Below, piece after piece: positions 1 through 10,156 of a DNA stretch of 64,000 nt. The notes below the pieces were generated by a model. That model ran no database searches. It was not told the origin of the DNA and worked only from the letters and a program-made list of their open reading frames with translations. This DNA is from Acutalibacter sp. 1XD8-33 (GTDB lineage: Bacteria > Bacillota > Clostridia > Oscillospirales > Acutalibacteraceae), in assembly GCF_003612555.1 (NCBI RefSeq), contig NZ_RAZF01000006.1, positions 62,001 to 126,000 of the forward strand, read 5' to 3'. The first letter of the stretch is position 1. Each line of letters starts with the position of its first letter. The translations under genes were made by a program, and so were the position numbers.

Positions 1-12
1 GCTTTGTCGACA

Positions 13-261
13 TCAAACCGCCCCCTTATCCGAAAAAATCAGGCGGCGCATCATGCTGGGGAGCGGCTCGTCCCCGCCGCACTCCGTCTCGATAACATAC
101 CAGGTGTTGCCGATTTTGCGGGTCACCTTGCAGGAGAAGGGATTCCGCAGGCCGCGCTCTTTGTACCAGTCCTCAATAAAATCGGCGGGCGCATCGAACA
201 TCGGCTCATAGCAGGCGCACAGGTCAATGGGTTCATACACATAGCTTTCAAAATTGTTCAA
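13..261 (-). CDS. Small hypothetical protein of the mobile element
   Basis: An 82-residue acidic protein of unknown function. The start codon is TTG, supported by a GGAGG seven bases upstream; no ATG lies near that site. It carries Cys, Trp and Tyr residues scattered along its length but no motif I can name, no signal peptide and no membrane segment. It lies 32 bp downstream of the small HTH-like gene on the same strand and belongs to the same minus-strand run as the primase and relaxase genes, so it is inferred to be an accessory gene of the mobilisable element. Existence is well supported; function is unknown. Confidence 0.6.
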   Translation of the reverse strand: MNNFESYVYEPIDLCACYEPMFDAPADFIEDWYKERGLRNPFSCKVTRKIGNTWYVIETECGGDEPLPSMMRRLIFSDKGAV

Positions 262-293
262 TCAAGTACCTCCATAATTCGTAGTTTGTTGGG

Positions 294-515
294 TCAGTCG
301 GTCTTGCGCCGAACCCACTGAATGTCATAGCCCAGCACATCGGCAAGCTGGACAGCCTCCTTGTAGCGAAGGGACTCCCGCTGGAGTTTGTTGGAAAGAT
401 TGGACACGCTGTCCGACCAACTGTACACATCGGACAGCACATCGACTACCTCCTGCATGGTCATCCCCTGGCGCACAATGTACGCCTTGATCTCGTTCCT
501 CATATCGGATTTCAA
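294..515 (-). CDS. Small DUF6471-like / HTH-like protein
   Basis: A 73-residue protein with the pattern of small DUF6471-type proteins found in clostridial mobile elements: an N-terminal helix (RNEIKAYIVRQGMTMQEV), a central segment with SNLSNKLQRESLRYKEA, and a C-terminal helix ending in GYDIQWVRRK. The arrangement resembles a Cro-like helix-turn-helix, so a DNA-binding or copy-control role is possible but inferred. The TTG start at 515 has a GAGGAAA element at good spacing; an ATG four codons later (503) lacks one. It lies downstream of the primase gene. Confidence 0.6.
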   Translation of the reverse strand: MKSDMRNEIKAYIVRQGMTMQEVVDVLSDVYSWSDSVSNLSNKLQRESLRYKEAVQLADVLGYDIQWVRRKTD

Positions 516-866
516 AGTTTTTTCCTCACTTTCTGATGAATTTGATGTTGTGTTCCGAAAAGCACTTTTACGGAATGATGAGGATTTTCGCAGTTGTAAT
601 TTCCACTCAGATTTGCTATGATGAAGCCCAGGTCACAAAGGCCACCTGTCCACTTCACAGTTCTGTGGGACACCCGCCAAAACAGTGGGAAAGACCGCTT
701 GTCCGCAAAGTGGCTACACGGTTCGGTAAATCACCAACAGGTGTAATCCGTTCACTGTTGAACAACCTTTTTCACGAAAATCACAAGGATTAAATTGCAC
801 CCAGCTTTTTAGGGACAGGCCAGCGTGACCGCCTATAAAAAGATAAAGGCGAACTCAAAACTATCC

Positions 867-922
867 GTACATACGTACATCGGTACAGGGTCAGCCTCCT
901 TTGTACGCCTGTACGCACGTAC
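867..922. repeat. Two GTAC arrays with 8-bp period
   Basis: The tetramer GTAC occurs at 867, 875 and 883, and again at 903, 911 and 919. Each cluster is three GTACs spaced exactly eight bases apart, and the clusters are 36 bp apart. The array lies just downstream of the primase/helicase stop codon. The rest of the 426-bp gap (516-941) holds no credible gene. Iteron-like binding sites or part of a replication or transfer origin are possible readings; this is inference. Confidence 0.5.
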
Positions 923-941
923 AGATAATTTCATTTCTTTT

Positions 942-2261
942 TTATAAAGCGGTCGGCTTTATCAAGACCTCAATTCCCACATAGCCCCGACACCGCTTAC
1001 CGTTGCCGATATACACATTGTTGGTGGCCTCCAGCCGGTAGGCATCAGCATTCTGGGCGATAAAACCGGAAAAGCTCTTGGGGGAAAGCGGGTTCTCTGC
1101 GTTATCCTCGCACCAGACCTTATAGGCGGCGTACAGGTCACGGGTAGCGGCCTCGCTGTCAGCCTTGAACTGGACATAGCCATTAGAGGTCAGGAAATCC
1201 ACAATGTTGTTGGCCTCCCGGACTACAACAGAGATGTTTTCTTTGGCCCGGTCGCTGACGGTGAACCGATAATTGTTTATCAGCAGGCGGTGAAGCCCTT
1301 CCAGACACCAGAGGAATATTCCCTCGCGCTCGGCAATCAGCTTTTCAGAGAGGAACGGGTCATCTATCCGTCCTGGGGGCTTGTCCTTGGTGGTCAGCAC
1401 GATCTGGCGGCGAAAGAAACCGTCAGACCTGTCATGGAGGGCGGTCAAGGCTCCGTTGCCGAAGCAGAGGAACCGCACATAGAGCTGGCTCTGGTAGCTC
1501 TGGACACCCTTGCGCTCCATGTCCATCTTGCACTCCGAGGTCACGATGGATTTGATATAATTGGTCTTGGGCAGGGCGCTCATGTCCATGTCATCGTCCA
1601 CCATCAGCAGCTTGCTTTCCAAGTCAGCGCGGCTGAACCGGTTGTTCTCCACTTTCTGGATGCTGGTGGTGTTCATGCTGTCTCCGAAGATGGATCGCAT
1701 CACCAGCCCGATCCGGCTTTTGCCCTCGCCGCCCTTGCCGATGAGCATCAGCATCTTCTGGCCCTTGGTGGTGGGGAGCAGGCAGTAGCCCAGGTATTCC
1801 TGCAAGGTGGGGATGTCCCCCGGGTACAGCAACTCCGACAGAAAGCGCAGCCACTTCTCCGGCGGCGGCGCGTCGGGGCGGTAGGCAACAGTCAGGCGGT
1901 TGTTGCAGTAGGCTTTCTCTGGAGAGAACCGGCCATCCACAAACAATGTGCCGTTGGCAACATGGATACGGTCGCACTCCAACGCTATCGGCTCCGAGTA
2001 CGCCGCCATCCGCAGGGCGTTCAGAAGTTCGTCCACCTTCCTGGCGATTTTGATTTCCAGCCACGGGCTGATTTGGTCGTAGATTTCCTTTTTCAAGACG
2101 CTCTCGTCCGCCACCAGCCCGTCCACCGTGTAGAACCGCCCCCGGATACAGCGCATGGGATGTTCCCGAAGAAACGACCGGCAGAACTCCGGCTCCATGA
2201 GCTTGTAATCCTCCGTCAGCCAGTCGGGAAAACCGGACTGCAGTTCTTCATTTTCATTCAT
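942..2261 (-). CDS. Phage/plasmid-type primase-helicase (P4/D5 family)
   Basis: A 439-residue SF3 helicase of the P4 primase / D5-N family, which unwinds DNA and supports primer synthesis during autonomous replication of phages and integrative elements. Visible motifs: a D5-N-like region before the ATPase (about 135-165), Walker A GKGGEGKS at 175-182, Walker B LLMVDDD near 218-224, sensor FLCFGNG at 264-270 and the DGFFRRQ arginine-finger block at 280-286. The chosen ATG has GGAGG nine bases upstream; an in-frame start 36 codons earlier has no comparable site. The N-terminal half lacks an obvious complete AEP primase domain, so priming may need another protein. It follows the relaxase gene on the same strand. 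Confidence 0.85.
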   Translation of the reverse strand: MNENEELQSGFPDWLTEDYKLMEPEFCRSFLREHPMRCIRGRFYTVDGLVADESVLKKEIYDQISPWLEIKIARKVDELLNALRMAAYSEPIALECDRIHVANGTLFVDGRFSPEKAYCNNRLTVAYRPDAPPPEKWLRFLSELLYPGDIPTLQEYLGYCLLPTTKGQKMLMLIGKGGEGKSRIGLVMRSIFGDSMNTTSIQKVENNRFSRADLESKLLMVDDDMDMSALPKTNYIKSIVTSECKMDMERKGVQSYQSQLYVRFLCFGNGALTALHDRSDGFFRRQIVLTTKDKPPGRIDDPFLSEKLIAEREGIFLWCLEGLHRLLINNYRFTVSDRAKENISVVVREANNIVDFLTSNGYVQFKADSEAATRDLYAAYKVWCEDNAENPLSPKSFSGFIAQNADAYRLEATNNVYIGNGKRCRGYVGIEVLIKPTAL

Positions 2262-2370
2262 TCTCGCATACCTCCAATCTGTAAAAATTAGGCGTCTATC
2301 ACGCCCCTCTGCTGTGGTTATGAGCAAATTTGAAAAAACCGGGCTAATGGTATGACAGCCCTGTTTCAAA

Positions 2371-2419
2371 AAACATGACAGAGGGAATTTCGGTAGCGGC
2401 TTCCGAAATTTCCTCTGTC
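2371..2419 (-). terminator. Terminator after relaxase gene
   Basis: A long inverted repeat (arms from 2377 and to 2419, about 17 bp with one mismatch, loop about 9 nt) is followed on the minus strand by a run of six T. It lies 14 bp beyond the relaxase stop codon, as expected of an intrinsic terminator. A secondary role in mobilisation cannot be excluded. Confidence 0.65.
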
Positions 2420-2432
2420 AGTGTAATAGCGA

Positions 2433-3686
2433 TCACCGCTCCAAATTGTGCCTTGTTGCGGACTGCGCCGCCCTGCGCTCGGCATCCTGTCTGGCAATCT
2501 CGGCCCTGCCCTGTTCCAGCTTGGCAAGGACGGATTCTCTGGCCTTCTCTTTGATTTGTCTGGTGGCGGCGGCTCTAACCTCCGGCTTTCGCAAAACCGC
2601 CCGCACTCTGGCAAGTACCTTTTGAGCGGCTTTGTGAATCAGCTCCTGCGCCTTTCCCAGCACCTTGCCGATCAGCCCTTTCTCGGCTGAGGAAAAGCGC
2701 CGCTCCGGGGCCAGACACCAATCCTTATAATCGGAGATAATCTTTTCATCCTGCAACTGCGTCTCGGCGCGGACAGCATCGGTTACAAGCTCCACAGCCT
2801 TGTCGTAAGCAATTTCTGTGACCTCATCAATCAGGGCCTCGGCATCCTCCAACCGGAGCGACACGGCCTCTAACGCCTGTGCCTTTTCTTCAATCGCCGC
2901 CTCCTGCGCTGTAATCAATTTCTTCTGCTTCTGAATGATATAGTCGTTCTTCATCAGGTAACTGCGCCCACGGTTGCCGGGGTCAGGTTCTTCCTCCACC
3001 GCCAGACCATGCCGTTTGCAGATGTCAAACAGAATGACCCGGCAGACCGCATCGAAAACCATCTTCCGGTTGTTGGTGCGACCCTGCTTTTTCTCCGGGT
3101 CAGGCAGTTCAAATCCAAGGGCCTCCAGCGCCTTTTCCTGTTTCGGCTCGACCTCGCCATAGCGGTTCACATAATCAAAAACATGGCGCTCATGGATGTG
3201 GGGCGTGGCCTCGTCCAGATGGAGCGCCCAGTCAATAACATGGATATGTTCACCGAAGCGGCGTTCAAGCTCCATCATAAATTCCCCGACGATTTCCAGA
3301 AGTACATCCGGAGAAACGGAGTCCTCCATTGTGCCGATCTGGTAAATGGTTTCCTCCGGGCAGAAGCGTTTGTCGGCCAGCAGATCATCCACGTTCCGGT
3401 CCCGCTCAGAGTGGCGGCGTTTGGCGTTCCGCTCATGCTGGCCATCAAGATAATCTGAGTAACGGTTCAGATAAAAGGCCCGCTCCACATCCGCAAAGGA
3501 CACCTCGCTTTCCTGCTGGGCCGGATAGGTCGCGCCCCGGAAGCAATCCCAATAAATGTTCCGCTGAATGCGCTCACCGTCAATGTGGTCAGCGTGTTCG
3601 GTAGCGAAGGTTCTGTCATTGTGCGTTGATTTGTAGACGCCGCTTTTTCCGGCTCTCCCGTTGTGCCGGGTCAGTCTTTTTGCCAT
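2433..3686 (-). CDS. Mobilisation relaxase (MobA/MobV-like)
   Basis: A 417-residue Mob/Pre-like relaxase that would nick the element at oriT and lead the strand during conjugative mobilisation. The metal-binding HxDExxPHxH motif is clear at residues 156-165 (HLDEATPHIH). The N-terminal part is basic and has the KRLTRHNGRAG start seen in clostridial mobile-element Mob proteins. From about residue 250 the protein is a charged, helical, probably coiled-coil region rich in Glu, Ala and Arg. The ATG at 3686 has AAGGAG upstream; a longer reading frame 38 codons earlier lacks one and runs into tandem repeats. Clostridial relatives are often mislabelled as serine/arginine-rich proteins. It is divergent from the XRE regulator. 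Confidence 0.82.
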   Translation of the reverse strand: MAKRLTRHNGRAGKSGVYKSTHNDRTFATEHADHIDGERIQRNIYWDCFRGATYPAQQESEVSFADVERAFYLNRYSDYLDGQHERNAKRRHSERDRNVDDLLADKRFCPEETIYQIGTMEDSVSPDVLLEIVGEFMMELERRFGEHIHVIDWALHLDEATPHIHERHVFDYVNRYGEVEPKQEKALEALGFELPDPEKKQGRTNNRKMVFDAVCRVILFDICKRHGLAVEEEPDPGNRGRSYLMKNDYIIQKQKKLITAQEAAIEEKAQALEAVSLRLEDAEALIDEVTEIAYDKAVELVTDAVRAETQLQDEKIISDYKDWCLAPERRFSSAEKGLIGKVLGKAQELIHKAAQKVLARVRAVLRKPEVRAAATRQIKEKARESVLAKLEQGRAEIARQDAERRAAQSATRHNLER

Positions 3687-3830
3687 TCTGCTCTCCTTCT
3701 TGTTTCTCGTTTTTGCTGTTCCGGGAGTGGACAGAGGGCGGCGAAGCCGCCAAATCTGAGTGCTTTGCGCCAGATAATAACCCAGTATGGATTGACGCAA
3801 GCATCAATCCTACCTGGGCCAAGGGTTTCA

Positions 3831-3984
3831 CCCTCTGGACACCGGAGCAGGCGTTGTCACCCTGCACCCGACCCAAAGGGCTTTGCCCTCTGGACACCCA
3901 ACAGGCGCTGCCGCCCTGTACCCGGCCAAAAGGGCGCTGCCCTCTTGACACCCGGCAACGGGCTTACCACCCTCTGCACTCCCG
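3831..3984. repeat. Imperfect 54-55 bp tandem repeats
   Basis: Three imperfect tandem units begin at 3831, 3886 and 3940, each opening with CCCTCTGGACACC or CCCTCTTGACACC and containing a CACCCTGCACCC-like block. They lie upstream of the relaxase in the 627-bp gap between the divergent relaxase and XRE genes. Repeats in this position commonly accompany oriT regions, so a transfer-origin role is inferred. The remainder of the gap shows no gene. Confidence 0.55.
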
Positions 3985-4230
3985 CGAAAGATGCAGACCG
4001 CCGCTATCTGCGGATAGCTTTGAACTGCATCTTTGCTCGCGCTGTTCTCCCCGACTCAGTTCCTGCCCCTGTTATTTCAGCGGCGTTTTGTTCCCCTTGG
4101 TGCGCTCCATGCGATACTTCACCGGAGAACATATCCATTTCGGACGGTCATTCTTTTTTCAAGCTGCAATGCTGTGTGACAGGAACATCGTAGCAGAAAA
4201 AGGGCCACTCTCCCGTATATCCAGGAGGTA

Positions 4231-4284
4231 GGAAATCCGGCCTGAAAACCGGATATTTCCACGCTCTCGGAAATGTGGTAGAAT
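4231..4284 (+). promoter_or_regulatory. Candidate promoter/operator of XRE gene
   Basis: An imperfect inverted repeat at 4231-4260 (GGAAATCCGG ... CCGGATATTTCC) overlaps a weak -35 TTTCCA (4256-4261), 17 bp before TAGAAT (4279-4284). The layout fits autorepression by the XRE protein that follows, but this is inference. Confidence 0.4.
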
Positions 4285-4313
4285 GGCAGTAAAATCAGAT
4301 GGAGGGCAACGAT

Positions 4314-5120
4314 ATGTCTTTGACGATACAGGAACGGATAAAGGACCTGCGGGTGGAACGTGGACTGACGCTGAAGGAGCTTGCGGAGCAAACGGGCCTG
4401 TCCTCATCTGCGCTGGGTAGCTACGAGGCAGACGATAGCAAGGACATCAGCCACTATGCCCTTATCAGGCTGGCAAAGTTTTACGGTGTGACCGCCGATT
4501 ATCTTCTGGGCCTGACAGAAACAAAGCGCCACCAAAACGCTGATCTCGCAGACCTGCGTTTGAGTGACGCTATGATTGATGTGCTGAAAGCGGGGCGGGT
4601 GGATACTGCCCTGCTGGGGGAATTGGTAGCGCATCCGGATTTTATAAAGCTGCTGGCCGATATTCAAATTTATGTAGAGGGCATCGCCGCCATGCAGATA
4701 CAAAATCTGAACGCATGGGTAGATGTGGCACGGGCTGAAATCGTGGAGAAGTACCAGCCGGGAGAGAATGACAGAACGACCTATCTCCTGCAAGCGTCTC
4801 ATGTGGACGAGGGAGAGTATTTCACCAGCCGGGTGCATCGTGACATTGACGTAATTATGGAGGATATGCAGGAGGCCCATCGTGGCCGAAGCGACAGCGC
4901 ACCGAAAAACTCTGCCGCAGAAGAATTGAAACAGGACTTGGATGAGGTTGCCCATTTCAATGGTAGCAAGTTGGAGCAGTTGATTATGCTGTTCTGTAAG
5001 CAGACAAAGCTCCGCTACAAAAAACTGACTGAAGAAGAAAAACAATGGCTGGCCCGGATTGCACAGAAGTCGGAGTTGCTGAAAGGTTCGGTGTCGCAAA
5101 GGGGAAAGAAGAGAAAATAG
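4314..5120 (+). CDS. XRE-family transcriptional regulator
   Basis: A 268-residue regulator with an N-terminal Cro/C1-type helix-turn-helix in the first 70 residues (IKDLRVERGLTLKELAEQTG then SALGSYE), followed by the RLAKFYGVTADYLLGL block typical of these proteins. The remaining 190 residues are a helical domain with no motif I can name and a Lys/Arg-rich C-terminus. The ATG at 4314 has GGAGGG at good spacing; an ATG five codons earlier overlaps that site. It lies between the mobilisation genes and the Cys-rich peptide operon, reading towards the latter. It probably represses element genes; a role in controlling the peptide operon is possible. Confidence 0.85.
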   Translation: MSLTIQERIKDLRVERGLTLKELAEQTGLSSSALGSYEADDSKDISHYALIRLAKFYGVTADYLLGLTETKRHQNADLADLRLSDAMIDVLKAGRVDTALLGELVAHPDFIKLLADIQIYVEGIAAMQIQNLNAWVDVARAEIVEKYQPGENDRTTYLLQASHVDEGEYFTSRVHRDIDVIMEDMQEAHRGRSDSAPKNSAAEELKQDLDEVAHFNGSKLEQLIMLFCKQTKLRYKKLTEEEKQWLARIAQKSELLKGSVSQRGKKRK

Positions 5121-5244
5121 GATTTTTGACGTATTCTTCTATCAAAAAGGTGAATACATCCCCCGAAATCACTGCCGCAGTCTATGCGCATCAGGCAAAT
5201 TATAAATAGATGTTCCCCTTTCCGTGAGATGCTTCAATTTTTTC

Positions 5245-5273
5245 TTGACTACATTGATAGCTTGTGGTATACT
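5245..5273 (+). promoter_or_regulatory. Sigma-A-type promoter of the RiPP operon
   Basis: TTGACT (5245-5250), a 17-bp spacer and TATACT (5268-5273) lie 65 bp before the precursor start codon. This is the best promoter match in the gap after the XRE gene and marks the start of the AT-rich operon. Confidence 0.7.
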
Positions 5274-5338
5274 AAATTCGTTAAAATATGGGTTTTGACT
5301 TGCTGACAAAACAAACTATATACAAGGGGGCACCTTAT

Positions 5339-5533
5339 ATGAGCGCAAGTAACTTGGATTACAGTCATCTCTACGGAAACATTCACGCTTCGGCAGAAAC
5401 TGTTACGATGGCAAAATGCAATTGCACTGCGTGCAATTCCTGTTCATGTGGTCGTTGTGAGCGGTGTATTAGCCAATGTACAGGATGCAGGAGTGGGTAT
5501 CTCGCAGAAGAGTTGGAGTGGGAGGTTGCTTGA
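5339..5533 (+). CDS. Cysteine-rich RiPP precursor peptide (candidate)
   Basis: A 64-residue peptide with a Cys-free leader (1-26, containing DYSHLYGNIHASAETV) and a core with nine Cys at 27, 29, 32, 35, 37, 40, 43, 47 and 50, mostly spaced CxC or CxxC, ending in an acidic tail (EELEWEVA). The ATG at 5339 has AAGGGGG upstream; an earlier in-frame ATG at 5288 has no such site. The stop codon overlaps the start of the radical SAM gene (TGATG), so the two are translationally coupled. Small Cys-rich ORFs in front of SPASM radical SAM enzymes are known substrates for thioether formation (ranthipeptide/sactipeptide type). The exact family and the product are not assigned; it resembles Clo7bot/FibroRumin-like precursors only in general layout. 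Confidence 0.75.
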   Translation: MSASNLDYSHLYGNIHASAETVTMAKCNCTACNSCSCGRCERCISQCTGCRSGYLAEELEWEVA

Positions 5534-6942
5534 TGATTAAGCTCTCTCGTTTTGCACATGTATTTGAAATGGATGATGGCAATGTTGCCTTGTATCATTC
5601 GTTAAGGATGAAACCTGTGTATCTTTCACGAGAGGCATTTGAGAGCTTGCAGGCATGGCTTGCAAGCTCTTTTTGCAATGAGTGTGAAGATGCACCATCC
5701 ACCATCTATAACGAAGTTTTAGAATTAAAAAAGTGGAAAATTTTGTCTCATAATGAGGACGAGGATGAAAAGGTTTTGGAGTTTATTAAATCTCAAATTC
5801 CGGAGCCTGCTATAAGTGTTTGCTATATGATTCTCAGTGAACAGTGTAATTTGGCCTGTAAGTATTGCTTTTTAGGAAACAATGACCAAGAAAAAAGAAG
5901 CCATTTCAGCCTGCAAAATATGTCTGTTGAAACAGCAGACAAAGCAATCACTTTTTTTCTACGTCAACTTAATAACTCTGGACTGGACTTTGAGAAAGAA
6001 AAAGCAGTCGTAATTTTTTATGGTGGCGAACCTTTGGTCAATTATCCCATTCTTGTTTATATCGCGGAAAAACTTATACAGCTTCAGAAAACGGAACACT
6101 GCCTAAAAAATTTGGAAATGTCGATGGTCACAAATGGTTTGTTACTTGATGATAAAAAGATTACAAAATTAAAGGAGCTTGGTGTTGGGGTAGCTATCTC
6201 TGTTGATGGTTTTACTGAACAAGAAAATGCAATGCGTGTTGATCAAGGTGGTAAGACAGTATTCCACAAAGTTTTGGAAAAAATTGCACGTTGCCAAGCT
6301 CTTGGATTAAATATTACCCTATCAGTTACACTGAGTGAGGAGACCATAAAGAACCGAGAGAATATTATTCGCCTTCTGCGCCAATACAATATTGGCGCAT
6401 TGGGGTTTAATATAATGATGTCAAGTGATACATTTGCATTGCCCGATTCTTATAGTGATGCGGCAGCACATTACATTATTGATGAATTTGTCCAACTGCG
6501 GGAACTTGGAATTTATGAAGATCGTATCATGAGAAAGCTTGATGCCTTTTCAAAAGCCAAAGTATACTTTTCGGACTGCGCAGCAACATCTGGAGGTCAA
6601 ATTGTTATCGCACCAGATGGTCAGGTTGGCATATGTCATGGGTGCCTTCAAGATAAAAAATATTTTGTCTCAGATGTGGATGATAAGGCGTTTGATTGTA
6701 AGAGTGATGAGACATACATTGAATGGTCTCAACTTACACCAGTTAATCACGAAGAATGCTTGGGTTGTCCTGCGCTTGGTATTTGTGGTGGGGGATGTCC
6801 TTTAAATGCAATGTATTTAAAAAAGGGCAACACCATTCACTCAATTGACACAAGATTTTGCTCTCACGCAAAAATGACACTGGATTTTCTCATACATGAC
6901 CTTTACAGGGTTGTAAGTGAAAGGAAAATGCAAAATGCTTGA
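5533..6942 (+). CDS. Radical SAM/SPASM peptide maturase
   Basis: A 469-residue radical SAM enzyme. The N-terminal 90 residues resemble the leader-binding region of peptide maturases (FEMDDGNVALYHSL ... LSREAFESL). The SAM-cluster motif CNLACKYC gives Cys 105, 109 and 112, followed by GGEPL and a SVDG strand. The C-terminal SPASM region has Cys at 349, 368, 371, 389, 409, 412, 418, 422 and 443 (ECLGCPALGICGGGC), enough for auxiliary Fe-S clusters. Known relatives install thioether or other cross-links in Cys-rich precursors. The ATG overlaps the precursor stop and its GGAGG lies inside the precursor gene. The substrate is inferred from this coupling. Codon use is AT-rich, unlike the flanking chromosome. 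Confidence 0.88.
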   Translation: MIKLSRFAHVFEMDDGNVALYHSLRMKPVYLSREAFESLQAWLASSFCNECEDAPSTIYNEVLELKKWKILSHNEDEDEKVLEFIKSQIPEPAISVCYMILSEQCNLACKYCFLGNNDQEKRSHFSLQNMSVETADKAITFFLRQLNNSGLDFEKEKAVVIFYGGEPLVNYPILVYIAEKLIQLQKTEHCLKNLEMSMVTNGLLLDDKKITKLKELGVGVAISVDGFTEQENAMRVDQGGKTVFHKVLEKIARCQALGLNITLSVTLSEETIKNRENIIRLLRQYNIGALGFNIMMSSDTFALPDSYSDAAAHYIIDEFVQLRELGIYEDRIMRKLDAFSKAKVYFSDCAATSGGQIVIAPDGQVGICHGCLQDKKYFVSDVDDKAFDCKSDETYIEWSQLTPVNHEECLGCPALGICGGGCPLNAMYLKKGNTIHSIDTRFCSHAKMTLDFLIHDLYRVVSERKMQNA

Positions 6943-9058
6943 AGATGTCATAATTGAGGGGGTAGAGACTAATAATTTAAAGAACATCAATGTGCGGATA
7001 CAACAAGGTAAATTGAATTTAATTTTGGGTCCCTCGGGTAGCGGAAAGTCATCACTTGCTTATGATACAATCGCACAGATTGGTGAACATGAATATATGT
7101 CGATGTTTGCAGATGACGTCATGGAACCAATTTACAAAGTTAAGTCCTTCAAAAATATGATGCCAGCTGTACCAATTAAGCAAACGAATCACAACAATAA
7201 CAGCCGTTCCTCTATTGGAACGTATTTTGGGTTAAACCATATTATATTGTTGCTTTTTTCATCTTTTCTTGATATTGATGAAGAGTATTTTTCATTGAAC
7301 AGGGATGAAAACATATGTGAGATATGCCACGGAACAGGCGTCCAACGGGTATTAGACCCCAACAAAATTGTTGATTACAATGTTCCTATTAGCAAAATCC
7401 CTTTCCGTTGCTGGAACCGTTATAAGGACTATTTCTCACAGATTCTGGTCTGCTACTGCGATAGCCAAGACATCGACCCATTCAAAACCTTTAGAGAGCT
7501 ACATGAGGAAGATAGGCATAAATTACTATATGGAAGTAGTGATAATAAATATACTGTCAAGTACAAAAAGCAGGGCCGAATTGCAAGTAGAACTTCAAAA
7601 TATTATGGAGTTTTGCTGAATCGTGAAATGCTTCCAGGTATTTCAATTAGTAAGTCCTTTTATTCTGATGTGGAATGTAATTGTTGTCATGGAATGAAAT
7701 ATAATTCTGAGCATCTTTCTAAAGCAATCTATGGTATATCAATTGGCGAATTTATGACTAAGGATTTTGAAACCCTTTTGCCAATAATACGAAATATTAT
7801 AGATGGCAACTCGGATGGCAGACTAAAATTTATGCTGGATAGGGTATATAACTTTGTTCAAAAATGTGTGGAGCTAAGTTTGGGCCATCTGTTTTTTAAC
7901 AGAAGTATTCCAACATTGTCTGGTGGGGAGTTGCAACGTTTGAGGTTAGTGCAGGTTTTTACCACATGTTTATCTCATCTCCTTATAGTTCTCGATGAAC
8001 CATTAGCAGGGCTATCAGAAGCAGAACGGCCTTTAATTAAGAAAAATATAGCAACTTTGCTTGGGCAAAATACAATTGTTGTTGTAGATCATAGTGATTC
8101 TTTCATAGATATTGCAGGTCAAGTGATCTGCCTTGGCCCAAGCGGTGGGAACAACGGTGGATTTCTTATAGGTAAAGATGAATATTTAAAATCACAACGA
8201 GCAAAGACTGATTTTTTCGCGCCCCAGTGTGAACAGTTTTTAGACATATCTATTGATAGCAAAGTATATCAATATTCTGGTGCTAATATTCGGGTTGCTT
8301 TAAATAGAATGAATTTAATAACAGGAGCTTCCGGTATTGGTAAGTCGACCCTTCTACGAGAGTATCTTCCTCAAGCTCTTGACAGCTACACATACATTAA
8401 TCAAAAGCCTTTGTTGGGCAACACTAATTCATCGGTTGCAACTGCGTTGGGCTTATTAACAAGAATTTCCTCAATTTTCGGTTCCAAATTCCAAAAGGAT
8501 AGTCAGTTTTTCTCAAATTTGACCGGCAACGCTGGTTGCTGCAAAAAGTGTGGCGGTACAGGTTATGTGATGTACGGAGATAAAAATTCGTCTGCACTAA
8601 TGGTCGAGTGTAGTGAATGTCAAGGAACTGGATTCGATAGCGAGTTGAAGAAGTATACTATTGATGGTAAAACTTTAATTGATATCTGGAAAATGACAAT
8701 TGATGAAACAAGCGATTACTTCCGGACAGTTGACAAAAAAACTTTTGATTCCCTACTCCGTGCTAAGGCAGTAAAACTTAATCATCTGAAATTTGGGCAG
8801 CCAACAAGAACTCTTTCCGGTGGAGAGAATATTCGAATTAAACTGTTGAAATATTTACGTTCTTCGTCCAATATTATTGGTATTGATGAGCCCTTTAGGG
8901 GGTTGGATATTGTGGAGAGACAAGCTGTTGGATTATTCTTGGACAAAATGCGAACCAACGGGAAGACTATTTTGGTTATCGACCATTCCGATGGTATTGA
9001 GCATTTTTTTTCAAACCATATTATTTTAAAGAGAAATTGCAAAGGAATAATTTGTTAG
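6935..9058 (+). CDS. UvrA-like dual ABC ATPase (RiPP partner)
   Basis: A 707-residue paralogue of excinuclease subunit UvrA, about 230 residues shorter than a repair UvrA. Both ATPase halves look complete: Walker A GPSGSGKS (32-39) and GASGIGKS (464-471), signatures LSGGELQ (328-334) and LSGGENI (627-633), Walker B LDEP (353-356) and IDEP (650-653). Zn-finger cysteines are at 128/131, 248-251, 535-539 and 559/562. The UvrB-binding region between Walker A and the first Zn finger is much shortened, so incision with UvrB is unlikely. The ATG overlaps the maturase stop by 8 bp. UvrA-like proteins such as DrrC give self-resistance to DNA-binding drugs, so immunity or removal of the peptide from DNA is a reasonable inference. 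Processing is the alternative. Confidence 0.85.
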   Translation: MLEDVIIEGVETNNLKNINVRIQQGKLNLILGPSGSGKSSLAYDTIAQIGEHEYMSMFADDVMEPIYKVKSFKNMMPAVPIKQTNHNNNSRSSIGTYFGLNHIILLLFSSFLDIDEEYFSLNRDENICEICHGTGVQRVLDPNKIVDYNVPISKIPFRCWNRYKDYFSQILVCYCDSQDIDPFKTFRELHEEDRHKLLYGSSDNKYTVKYKKQGRIASRTSKYYGVLLNREMLPGISISKSFYSDVECNCCHGMKYNSEHLSKAIYGISIGEFMTKDFETLLPIIRNIIDGNSDGRLKFMLDRVYNFVQKCVELSLGHLFFNRSIPTLSGGELQRLRLVQVFTTCLSHLLIVLDEPLAGLSEAERPLIKKNIATLLGQNTIVVVDHSDSFIDIAGQVICLGPSGGNNGGFLIGKDEYLKSQRAKTDFFAPQCEQFLDISIDSKVYQYSGANIRVALNRMNLITGASGIGKSTLLREYLPQALDSYTYINQKPLLGNTNSSVATALGLLTRISSIFGSKFQKDSQFFSNLTGNAGCCKKCGGTGYVMYGDKNSSALMVECSECQGTGFDSELKKYTIDGKTLIDIWKMTIDETSDYFRTVDKKTFDSLLRAKAVKLNHLKFGQPTRTLSGGENIRIKLLKYLRSSSNIIGIDEPFRGLDIVERQAVGLFLDKMRTNGKTILVIDHSDGIEHFFSNHIILKRNCKGIIC

Positions 9059-9076
9059 AAGATAAGTTTAGTAAGA

Positions 9077-9114
9077 GCCCGTCTGAATCCATGTTAGGAA
9101 TCAGACGGGCTTTC
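9077..9114 (+). terminator. Terminator of the RiPP operon
   Basis: Fourteen-base arms (9077-9090 and 9097-9110, one mismatch) with a six-base loop are followed by TTTC, 18 bp past the UvrA-like stop codon. A strong stem with a short T tract. Confidence 0.75.
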
Positions 9115-9141: not shown

Positions 9142-9175
9142 AGTGATAAGTGAATTTAGTTCCTTATCACTATAA
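9142..9175. other. Probable right end of the mobile element
   Basis: A perfect 9-bp inverted repeat (AGTGATAAG at 9142-9150, CTTATCACT at 9163-9171) lies immediately before an open frame, beginning at 9176 after an in-frame TAA, that encodes the middle of a glycosidase. Base composition changes here from AT-rich to GC-rich. The simplest reading is the junction of the integrated element with the interrupted gene. The matching left end and the integrase would be outside the window. Confidence 0.5.
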
Positions 9176-10156
9176 AGGCAACAGCTGCGGGAGTTCACCA
9201 TCCACCATGAGCCCACCTTTGTGGCCGGACTTTGCAGCTATCAAAAGATGGAATCCTCCTGGCAGGAGCAGCGGGAATATGTGGAAAACGCGGTAAAGGC
9301 CCTGCCCGCCCCTTGGAAAGAAGAGGCGGAAAAGCGGCTGGCCCTTCTGCGGCCCCAACAGCCCGCTGCCTGCGCCGTACCCATCGGGGAGAGGGAATTC
9401 ATCATCAACGGCTATCAGGTCCAGGTGGAGCAGGACGGCAGCTTGCGCTTGAACAGCTATAACGGCAAGGTCTATGAAAATGTCTGGCTGGGCCGTTTGG
9501 TATATGAAATTTTCGGCGCCAAGACGGTGTTCGACAACCTGGAGGCTTACAACCGGGAGCTGGAGCATACCCGGGTCTGGGCAGAGGGGGATTTCTCCAA
9601 GCCGGGCCTGGATAAGGTGTCCAACCTGAAGGATACGGCCTATTCCTACCGGGTGGATCAGGCGGAGCAGAGCGGAAACCAGCTGCGCCTGTGGCTGGTG
9701 ACAGACGAGGAAGCGGGAGAGCGCTTTGGCGCGCCCCGGCTAGCCGTAGTAACCTATACCTTTGGGGAGCGGGTGGAGATCGACCTGCAGTGGTTCCAGA
9801 AGGACGAGAACCGCATCCCGGAGGGCCTGTTCTTTGGCATGAATCTGAACTACAGGCAGGGGGAGCCCGTCACCCTCTTTAAACTGGATCTGCCCATCGA
9901 CCCCTATCACGTGCGGGAGGGTGGGAACCGGAAGCTCCATGTGTCCCCGAGAATCTCCGGCGGATGCGGAGAGATCCGGAGCCTGCACGCGCCCCTGGTC
10001 TCCGTGGGTGGCCGGCACCTCTACGACGAGAACGAGAACTACGGCAATCCGGCGGATGGTATGTACTACCTCCTGTGCAACAACCGCTGGGGCACCAATT
10101 TCCCCCTGTGGTACGGAGAGAACGCCCGCTTCGGCTTCACCGTGGAGCTGAACTGA
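9176..10156 (+). pseudogene. C-terminal remnant of DUF5054/GH38-like glycosidase
   Basis: The open frame encodes about 326 residues of a sugar-active enzyme: the region starting REFTIHHEPTFVAGL, a helical segment, then a beta-rich C-terminal domain ending GTNFPLWYGENARFGFTVEL, which is characteristic of DUF5054 proteins with GH38-like catalytic domains. The catalytic N-terminal part is missing, there is no start codon with a ribosome site (only an internal GTG at 9221), and the frame opens directly at the presumed element junction. The gene is therefore probably truncated by the insertion; the missing part may lie left of the window. The DUF4091 gene follows 24 bp downstream and was probably its operon partner in glycan use. 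Confidence 0.7.

What the first reader, a model, noticed from the sequence alone, without database searches (positions are those of the whole stretch)
5245..9114. Three-gene RiPP-like cassette pairing a Cys-rich peptide with a UvrA-like ATPase
A promoter, a 64-residue nine-Cys peptide, a SPASM radical SAM enzyme and a shortened UvrA paralogue are translationally coupled and closed by one terminator. Seen directly: overlaps TGATG and 8 bp, AT-rich composition against a GC-rich host. Known: radical SAM/SPASM enzymes modify Cys-rich precursors, and UvrA-like proteins (DrrC) give self-resistance to DNA-binding drugs. Inferred: the mature peptide targets DNA or a DNA-bound process, and the UvrA-like protein protects against or delivers it. 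No transporter or protease is present, unlike most bacteriocin loci.
Basis: partly seen in the sequence, partly recalled or inferred. Interest (0 to 1): 0.88.

Follow-up and report, generated by a model that had tools for sequence, protein, structure and literature searches.

The report
Mobile peptide cassette with UvrA-like partner
A small mobile set of genes makes a cysteine-rich peptide, an enzyme predicted to cross-link it, and a stripped-down relative of a DNA-repair protein; the three travel together between very different bacteria with no recurring export gene, which suggests an undescribed weapon or defence that works inside the cell.

Summary
The cassette is real. Peptide (5339-5533, 9 Cys), radical SAM/SPASM enzyme (5533-6942) and UvrA-like ATPase (6935-9058) are translationally coupled, 38% GC, at the right end of a ~10.9-kb integrative element that splits a chromosomal gene. 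The enzyme is NCBI's FibroRumin maturase (TIGR04136, 747 bits, cut-off 400), a family named in no paper of the open library searched. New here: (1) the UvrA-like gene follows the maturase in 30 of 31 loci from seven phyla (the 31st is cut by its contig end) and forms one clade; (2) 26 of 31 loci carry two Cys-rich peptides, whereas the window's is a natural fusion of both (5 of 31); (3) no exporter or protease family recurs beside it; (4) a chemically different cassette (Cys-containing peptide, two ThiF enzymes, another UvrA-like ATPase) exists on an Acinetobacter and a Moraxella plasmid and in one more genome. The UvrA-like protein resembles the self-resistance protein Ecm16: no UvrB-binding domain, basic insertion domain kept. 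Best reading: a horizontally mobile, non-exported RiPP module in which the UvrA-like ATPase handles the modified peptide on DNA, most likely as its antidote. DNA as target, the chemistry and the benefit are inferred.

The parts
5245..5273 (+). promoter-like site TTGACT-17-TATACT with TG before the -10
   Evidence: 11 such sites found against 13.2 expected by chance, so only plausible
5339..5533 (+). fused Cys-rich precursor peptide, 64 aa, 9 Cys: type-B core (CNCTACNSCSC) plus type-A core (CISQCTGC) and an LEWEV tail
   Evidence: TIGR04135 32.8 bits, below its cut-off of 45
5533..6942 (+). FibroRumin radical SAM/SPASM peptide maturase, 469 aa
   Evidence: TIGR04136 747 bits against cut-off 400; model pLDDT 88, matches CteB (5wgg) over residues 5-461 at Z 28.0, rmsd 4.2, 417 aligned
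6935..9058 (+). UvrA-like ABC ATPase, 707 aa, without UvrB-binding domain, insertion domain kept
7355..7621 (+). insertion (DNA-binding) domain of the UvrA-like protein, residues 141-229
   Evidence: PF17755 E 6e-12; net charge +4 to +11, median +6, in region 136-245 of 23 aligned rows, window included
9074..9113 (+). terminator-like hairpin with a short T tail
   Evidence: not listed by the scan
9159..9176 (.). right-end arm of the integrative element (15 of 18 bases match, inverted, an arm at window -1763)
   Evidence: read by eye
4299..5120 (+). helix-turn-helix (XRE-type) regulator gene of the element
   Evidence: name recalled from its sequence, no family search
2433..3800 (-). relaxase-like gene of the element
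   Evidence: phmmer relatives near the cassette in L014, L016, L017; name recalled
942..2369 (-). primase/helicase-like gene of the element
   Evidence: 51% identical relative in L010, also near a cassette; name recalled
1..16 (-). start of the large serine recombinase gene, which continues outside the window (C72:60286-62016)
   Evidence: name recalled from its sequence
9179..10156 (+). 3' part of the chromosomal gene split by the element

Best explanation
This is a mobile, non-exported RiPP cassette. The maturase binds the shared leader of one or two small peptides with its N-terminal recognition domain and cross-links their Cys-rich cores, probably as thioethers. The product acts in the cell that makes it, most likely on DNA or a DNA-bound process. 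The third gene is a DNA-scanning UvrA-like ATPase that cannot recruit UvrB; it recognises DNA bearing the modified peptide and clears it, as is proposed for Ecm16 and echinomycin, so the carrier survives. The net result is a conflict module (addiction or counter-invader) that selfish elements pass between phyla. Shown here: gene content, order, coupling, co-inheritance, mobility, lack of a recurring exporter family, and the fold and domain loss of the UvrA-like protein. Inferred: leader binding, cross-linking, DNA as target, the antidote role, and the benefit.
For: UvrA-like gene downstream in 30 of 31 cassettes, the 31st cut by its contig end. Its 25 full-length rows form one clade at 100/100 against 8 other rows. 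Of 28 genomes searched whole (L013 and L023 not given), 26 have it, only at the cassette; the other two are L032, cut, and L036, a divergent enzyme without it. No orphan in searches of 300, 29, 397 and 393 genomes (only 5 positives, all with known cassettes). Ecm16 is the top VIA-align match, Z 36.3, rmsd 3.1, 572 aligned. [quoted passage not shown] the matching traits are seen here. In L009-L039 no gene family other than the cassette's recurs in more than 6 of 31 loci. Integrative element; its target gene is intact in 9 of 24 congeners. A ThiF-type cassette repeats the logic.
Against: No direct evidence for modification, DNA binding, toxicity or protection. By Foldseek E-value and by phmmer canonical UvrAs rank above Ecm16. 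UvrA-like genes of L025 and L035 are frame-broken beside seemingly intact peptide and maturase genes, which an antidote should not tolerate if the breaks are real; both lie in homopolymer runs of metagenome bins. L014/L017 pair a maturase 65% identical to L016's with a UvrA-like protein 85-86% identical to L016's, so the pairing is not strictly specific. In the tree the clade does not group with four Bacillota UvrAs labelled class II (no DrrC/Ecm16 row included). The window peptide has 7 acidic and 4 basic residues. The Campylobacter plasmid carries type I secretion genes elsewhere, 11-15 kb from its cassette.
Confidence: 0.42

Rival explanations
1. Anti-phage or anti-plasmid defence in which the UvrA-like ATPase is the sensor or effector. 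It scans DNA for foreign or modified stretches and deploys the cross-linked peptide there; the peptide is a warhead or cofactor, not a poison to be neutralised.
For: Defence-type genes lie near several cassettes: type I R-M (L021), Abi_alpha/PDC-S47 (L034), MzaB/MzaC and a methyltransferase (L038), AbiLi (L028), an AriA-like gene (L012). The ThiF-type cassette of Acinetobacter lies next to a BREX system. The UvrA-like protein scores 133.8 bits with the MADS component mad3. No export needed.
Against: Neighbour enrichment is weak: 8 to 12 of 90 ORFs against 1 of 51 in a one-genome control, Fisher p 0.16 to 0.03; without the L035 helicase, which is probably a recombination enzyme, 7 to 11 and p 0.26 to 0.056. 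No known defence system contains this trio as recalled; the mad3 match may be plain UvrA homology.
Confidence: 0.27
2. Secreted bacteriocin with the UvrA-like protein as immunity; export and leader cleavage are left to host transporters or to lysis.
For: Maturase kin make RiPPs. UvrA-like proteins give self-resistance in biosynthetic clusters (PMC10413001, passages). The two-peptide architecture recalls two-component sactibiotics such as thuricin CD (PMC12093266, listing and start of abstract). Many hosts are gut, rumen or mouth bacteria. The Campylobacter plasmid has type I secretion genes, though 11-15 kb away.
Against: No exporter or protease family recurs in L009-L039 (clustering by sequence, so unrelated exporters could escape; one AI-2E-type transporter among the 25 of 90 Pfam families shown). 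Leaders show no double-Gly site (read).
Confidence: 0.15
3. Metal- or redox-handling peptide: a metallothionein-like, cross-linked Cys peptide whose UvrA-like partner delivers metal or repairs DNA under stress.
For: Cys-x-Cys/Cys-x-x-Cys cores resemble metal-binding peptides; the UvrA-like protein keeps two zinc-type Cys clusters, invariant in 26 rows.
Against: Rarity and phylum-hopping do not fit housekeeping. No further gene family recurs in most loci. A SPASM maturase is not needed for a metallothionein.
Confidence: 0.08

Closest known systems
FibroRumin system (NCBIfam TIGR04135 peptide, TIGR04136 maturase)
   Same: Maturase far above the curated cut-off; peptide leader matches the family model over residues 1-38
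   Different: The window peptide misses the cut-off (32.8 of 45), probably because it is a fusion. No specific NCBIfam model was seen for the UvrA-like third gene among the 25 of 203 families shown; it is annotated as a hypothetical protein on the Campylobacter plasmid
Class II UvrA self-resistance proteins (Ecm16, DrrC)
   Same: No UvrB-binding domain, insertion domain kept, two ABC ATPase sites, next to a biosynthetic enzyme; Ecm16 is the top VIA-align match
   Different: 28% identity in the structural alignment; separate, long-stemmed clade, though no Ecm16/DrrC row was in the tree; partner of a ribosomal peptide on mobile elements. RiPPs are one of eight classes in a bulk list of actinobacterial clusters within 40 kb of uvrA or uvrA-like genes (PMC10413001, passages)
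Ranthipeptide/SCIFF maturases (CteB, PapB)
   Same: Radical SAM core and SPASM-type Cys pattern; CteB aligned over residues 5-461 at Z 28.0, rmsd 4.2, 417 aligned, N-terminal part included (that this part is an RRE is recalled)
   Different: PapB model 134 bits of a 340 cut-off, SCIFF 107 of 425; different peptides; no UvrA partner known in those systems as recalled
ThiF-type UvrA cassette (found here: L053, L054, L080)
   Same: Short Cys-containing peptide, peptide-activating-type enzymes, UvrA-like ATPase of 706-717 aa, mobile DNA
   Different: Two ThiF adenylyltransferases in place of a radical SAM enzyme; UvrA-like proteins of L053 and L054 only 28-29% identical to the window's and in another clade

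Membership tests
FibroRumin maturase TIGR04136 | score over curated cut-off 400 bits | tested here: met
   747.3 bits, profile positions 1-457 of 458
FibroRumin peptide TIGR04135 | score over curated cut-off 45 bits | tested here: not met
   32.8 bits, residues 1-38 only; a fused variant rather than a strict member
RiPP with thioether cross-links (ranthipeptide/sactipeptide) | mass loss of 2 Da per cross-link in the core | not testable with these tools
   inferred from maturase kinship
Canonical UvrA TIGR00630 | score over 729.8 bits and UvrB-binding domain | tested here: not met
   310.1 bits; 5 residues in place of about 147
Class II UvrA (Ecm16/DrrC type) | UvrB-binding domain absent | tested here: met
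   definition from PMC10192343 passages
Class II UvrA (Ecm16/DrrC type) | insertion domain present | tested here: met
   PF17755 at 141-229; positive net charge in 23 rows
Class II UvrA (Ecm16/DrrC type) | both ABC ATPase sites intact | tested here: met
   Walker A/B core residues and both LSGGE motifs invariant in 26 aligned rows
Class II UvrA (Ecm16/DrrC type) | groups with class II proteins in a tree | tested here: inconclusive
   falls outside four Bacillota plasmid UvrAs that I labelled class II by length; no actinobacterial row included
Class II UvrA (Ecm16/DrrC type) | binds drug-loaded DNA and confers resistance | not testable with these tools
   needs protein and cells
Bacteriocin locus | dedicated exporter and leader protease in the operon | tested here: not met
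   no further gene between promoter and hairpin in the window; no such family recurs in L009-L039
Known anti-phage systems in PADLOC 2.0 | strong match of the three proteins to the models of one system | tested here: not met
   only partial homology: pVip 56.5 bits (maturase), mad3 133.8 bits (UvrA-like), no peptide hit

The most novel reading that the evidence does not exclude
UvrA-like ATPases without a UvrB-binding domain are dedicated partners of a whole class of intracellular RiPPs. Chemically unrelated maturases (a radical SAM/SPASM enzyme here, a ThiF pair elsewhere) feed modified Cys-containing peptides to a DNA-scanning ATPase, forming a new kind of mobile conflict system that needs no export.
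Probability: 0.35. Interest if true: 0.86.

Novelty: new variant of a known kind. Interest (0 to 1): 0.74.

Why it matters
RiPPs are usually read as exported weapons or signals. A conserved RiPP cassette without an exporter but with its own DNA-repair-like ATPase, spread over seven phyla and echoed by a second chemistry, points to modified peptides acting inside the cell. UvrA-like genes have served as markers of DNA-intercalator clusters (PMC10413001, passages), so the cassette predicts a ribosomal peptide that acts on DNA. This can be tested with three genes in a laboratory strain.

Tried and rejected
Rejected: ordinary bacteriocin operon (no exporter or protease in the operon); canonical UvrA repair gene (UvrB-binding domain missing, canonical UvrA also present); phage-borne gene (phage records gave no match of 60% identity or more for the maturase or the UvrA-like protein, and none above 33% in the rows shown; viral-contig scans gave only maturase relatives of 21-28% identity, and none for the UvrA alignment). 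The Kosakonia cassette DNA (L033) had no match in E. coli genomes.

Led nowhere: papers naming FibroRumin or its accessions (none); papers joining UvrA with RiPP, defence or mobile-element terms (no paper on such a pairing among those listed); PMC4289311 and PMC13289728 (term searches and passages); the ThiF RiPP review PMC12250964 has no 'UvrA' (term search). The library is open-access only, so absence there is not absence from print. A L. plantarum ThiF relative has no UvrA neighbour in the stretch seen.

Limits: the 30 loci come from six short peptide patterns, so the census is incomplete. L036 (44-46% identical maturase, no UvrA-like gene, another peptide) was left out of the 31; with it the count is 30 of 32. 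L019's UvrA-like gene is partly masked, L015 and L023 run off their contigs. In the reverse searches only 2-3 candidate stretches per genome were scored (39). clusters L009-L039 (L036 in, window out), ORFs of 60 aa or more, in whatever flank was held. The 90 neighbour ORFs come from 27 of 30 loci, three contigs being too short. Of their 77 PADLOC families only 25 were shown, so AbiD, AbiEi, PDC-S05 and PDC-S23 were not traced to a locus; 27 of the 90 were scanned singly, chosen by me. The L035 helicase hit (GajB models) was left out of the lower counts as probably a recombination enzyme. The ThiF-type UvrA-likes top the plasmid list only narrowly (29.7 and 28.9% against 28.9-28.7% for the rows below). 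The UvrA tree rests on few outgroup rows.
Full report
Observation. The peptide (5339-5533, 64 aa, nine Cys), the radical SAM/SPASM gene (5533-6942) and the UvrA-like gene (6935-9058) overlap as described. The promoter is plausible but such sites are no more frequent than by chance. The closing hairpin is strong (-27.7 kcal/mol, z -6.7) with a short T tail, and the terminator scan did not list it. The cassette has 38.0% GC, against 57.3% for window 9200-64000 and 53.4% for 17-5244.

Identity of the parts. The enzyme is the FibroRumin maturase of NCBIfam (TIGR04136, 747 bits against a cut-off of 400). The peptide resembles TIGR04135 but misses its cut-off, 32.8 of 45. The UvrA-like protein reaches only 310 of 729.8 bits with canonical UvrA and passes no curated cut-off among the 25 of 203 families shown. 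On a Campylobacter plasmid it is annotated 'hypothetical protein' beside named FibroRumin genes. A predicted model of the maturase (pLDDT 88) matches the thioether-forming CteB over residues 5-461 (Z 28.0, rmsd 4.2, 417 aligned), including the part before the radical SAM core; ChlB and a sulfatase maturase tie with it over the core alone.

Co-inheritance. A pattern scan of 84,980 species genomes gave 30 maturase loci; a plasmid search added Campylobacter sp. RM16187. Leaving out L036 (most divergent, no UvrA-like gene) and adding the window gives 31 loci. The UvrA-like gene lies directly downstream in 30; the 31st (L032) is cut by its contig end. The gap runs from -23 to +153 bp, and is -8 in the window and in 11 other loci. 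Sequence-identity matrices of the two proteins correlate (r 0.68, 0 of 2000 permutations as high, 25 rows). Of 28 genomes of these loci searched whole (L013 and L023 not given), 26 hold a FibroRumin-type UvrA-like gene, only at the cassette; the others are L032 and L036. Reverse searches found no orphan in 300, 29, 397 and 393 genomes, but these hold only five positives, all known cassettes. Only the window genome passes the maturase cut-off among 299 of its phylum. So the cassette is rare and kept together. Hosts span Bacillota, Synergistota, Spirochaetota, Actinomycetota, Bacteroidota, Pseudomonadota and Campylobacterota; many are metagenome bins, but Fretibacterium, Kosakonia, Atopobium and the Campylobacter plasmid are named strains.

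Two peptides or one. In 26 of 31 loci two short genes precede the maturase: type A (with the motif QC[TA]GC) and type B (with C.C..CN.C.C), both mostly ending in an acidic stretch with Trp. In five (window, L009, L014, L017, L038) a single peptide carries both motifs, B first. L023 and L024 have further copies. The maturases of window, L009, L014 and L017 form one clade (100/99); L038 lies outside it on a long branch, so one origin of the fused form is neither shown nor ruled out.

Module exchange. L014 and L017 carry a UvrA-like protein 85-86% identical to that of L016, a two-peptide locus, but a maturase only 65% identical to it and 70% identical to L009's. DNA identity rises across the maturase and into the UvrA-like gene. 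Peptide and maturase thus seem to move as one unit and the UvrA-like partner can be shared, which suggests that it recognises something common to both product types.

The UvrA-like protein. For its predicted model (pLDDT 88.5) VIA-align puts the class II protein Ecm16 first (Z 36.3, rmsd 3.1, 572 aligned), with canonical UvrAs at Z 33.8 and below. By Foldseek E-value Ecm16 is only rank 21, after canonical UvrAs and UvrA2, and by sequence it is second to T. maritima UvrA (that 7sh1 is Ecm16 is). The protein lacks the UvrB-binding domain (5 residues against about 147 in the host UvrA) and keeps the insertion domain, both ATPase sites and two Cys clusters, invariant in 26 rows. The insertion domain has net charge +4 to +11 in 23 rows. 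For Ecm16, UvrB-independence and DNA binding through the insertion domain are reported (PMC10192343, passages). UvrA-like genes have served as markers of DNA-intercalator clusters; RiPPs are one of the eight classes into which 642 actinobacterial clusters within 40 kb of uvrA or uvrA-like genes were sorted (PMC10413001, passages). In the tree the 25 FibroRumin-type rows form one clade (100/100) apart from two canonical UvrAs, four Bacillota plasmid UvrAs and two ThiF-type rows.

Mobility. The cassette lies at the right end of an element of about 10.94 kb (window -1763 to 9176, ends read by eye) with serine recombinase-, primase-, relaxase- and regulator-like genes (names recalled, no family search). 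The element splits a chromosomal gene: the left part matches five relatives at 84-88% identity over residues up to 347 and the right part continues from there at 63-71%. The gene is open in 9 of 24 congeners; the others gave no match. L010 has a 51% identical primase-like gene near a split-type cassette. Relaxase-, integrase- or recombinase-like genes lie near L010, L012, L014, L016, L017, L020 and L022, and L039 is a plasmid.

Surroundings. Among L009-L039 no other gene family recurs in more than 6 of 31 loci, and the six-locus group is antisense to the peptide genes. This clustering could miss unrelated exporters, and the Campylobacter plasmid has type I secretion genes 11-15 kb from its cassette. 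Among 90 nearest ORFs of 27 loci, PADLOC hits traced to a locus are type I R-M (L021, two ORFs), Abi_alpha/PDC-S47 (L034), MzaB and a methyltransferase (L038; MzaC lies beyond), AbiLi (L028), an AriA-like gene (L012) and a UvrD-type helicase (L035). A control of 51 chromosomal ORFs of the host gave one hit. With 8 to 12 positives Fisher p is 0.16 to 0.03; without the helicase 0.26 to 0.056: suggestive, not proven.

A second chemistry. The top-ranked UvrA-like proteins on plasmids outside this family (29.7 and 28.9% identity, only narrowly ahead of other plasmid UvrAs) sit behind a 63-66 aa peptide with 4-5 Cys and two ThiF adenylyltransferases in Acinetobacter johnsonii (beside BREX) and Moraxella osloensis. 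A third such operon, followed by mobilisation-like genes (name recalled), lies in the one positive of 299 genomes (L080). E. coli 23AR0998 keeps a truncated relative of that UvrA-like gene next to IS1 and near a P4-like satellite (satellite naming recalled). The two ThiF-type rows and the FibroRumin rows are separate clades, so the pairing with peptides may have arisen twice.

Mechanism. Most likely the cross-linked peptide acts inside the cell, on DNA, and the UvrA-like ATPase clears or channels it. The antidote version is favoured by the Ecm16/DrrC precedent, the defence version by the neighbourhoods. Two frame-broken UvrA-like genes (L025, L035) speak against a strict antidote if real, but both breaks lie in homopolymer runs of metagenome bins. 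None of the biochemical steps is shown.

Noticed in passing
L053:3526-8121, L054:3550-8154, L080:4113-8730: Cassette of a Cys-containing peptide, two ThiF adenylyltransferases and a UvrA-like ATPase; next to a BREX system in Acinetobacter and followed by mobilisation-like genes in L080.
   Followed up: partly
L079:8901-9833 (E. coli 23AR0998): Fragment of a ThiF-type UvrA-like gene beside IS1 and near a P4-like satellite; annotated only as an ATP-binding cassette protein.
   Followed up: no
L014 and L017 against L016: Peptide and maturase module exchanged above a conserved UvrA-like gene (maturase 65%, UvrA-like 85-86% identity).
   Followed up: yes
L025:3011-5129 and L035:9380-11466: UvrA-like genes frame-broken in homopolymer runs beside seemingly intact peptide and maturase genes; assembly error or real is open.
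   Followed up: partly
L036:8001-9323: Divergent maturase (44-46% identity) with another upstream peptide with repeated Cys motifs and no UvrA-like gene.
   Followed up: no
L023:593-1112, L024:3291-4225: Extra precursor copies: three and four Cys-rich peptide genes before the maturase.
   Followed up: no
G000 C72:59052-60278 and window 9179-10156: Chromosomal gene split by the integrative element; open in 9 of 24 congeners.
   Followed up: yes
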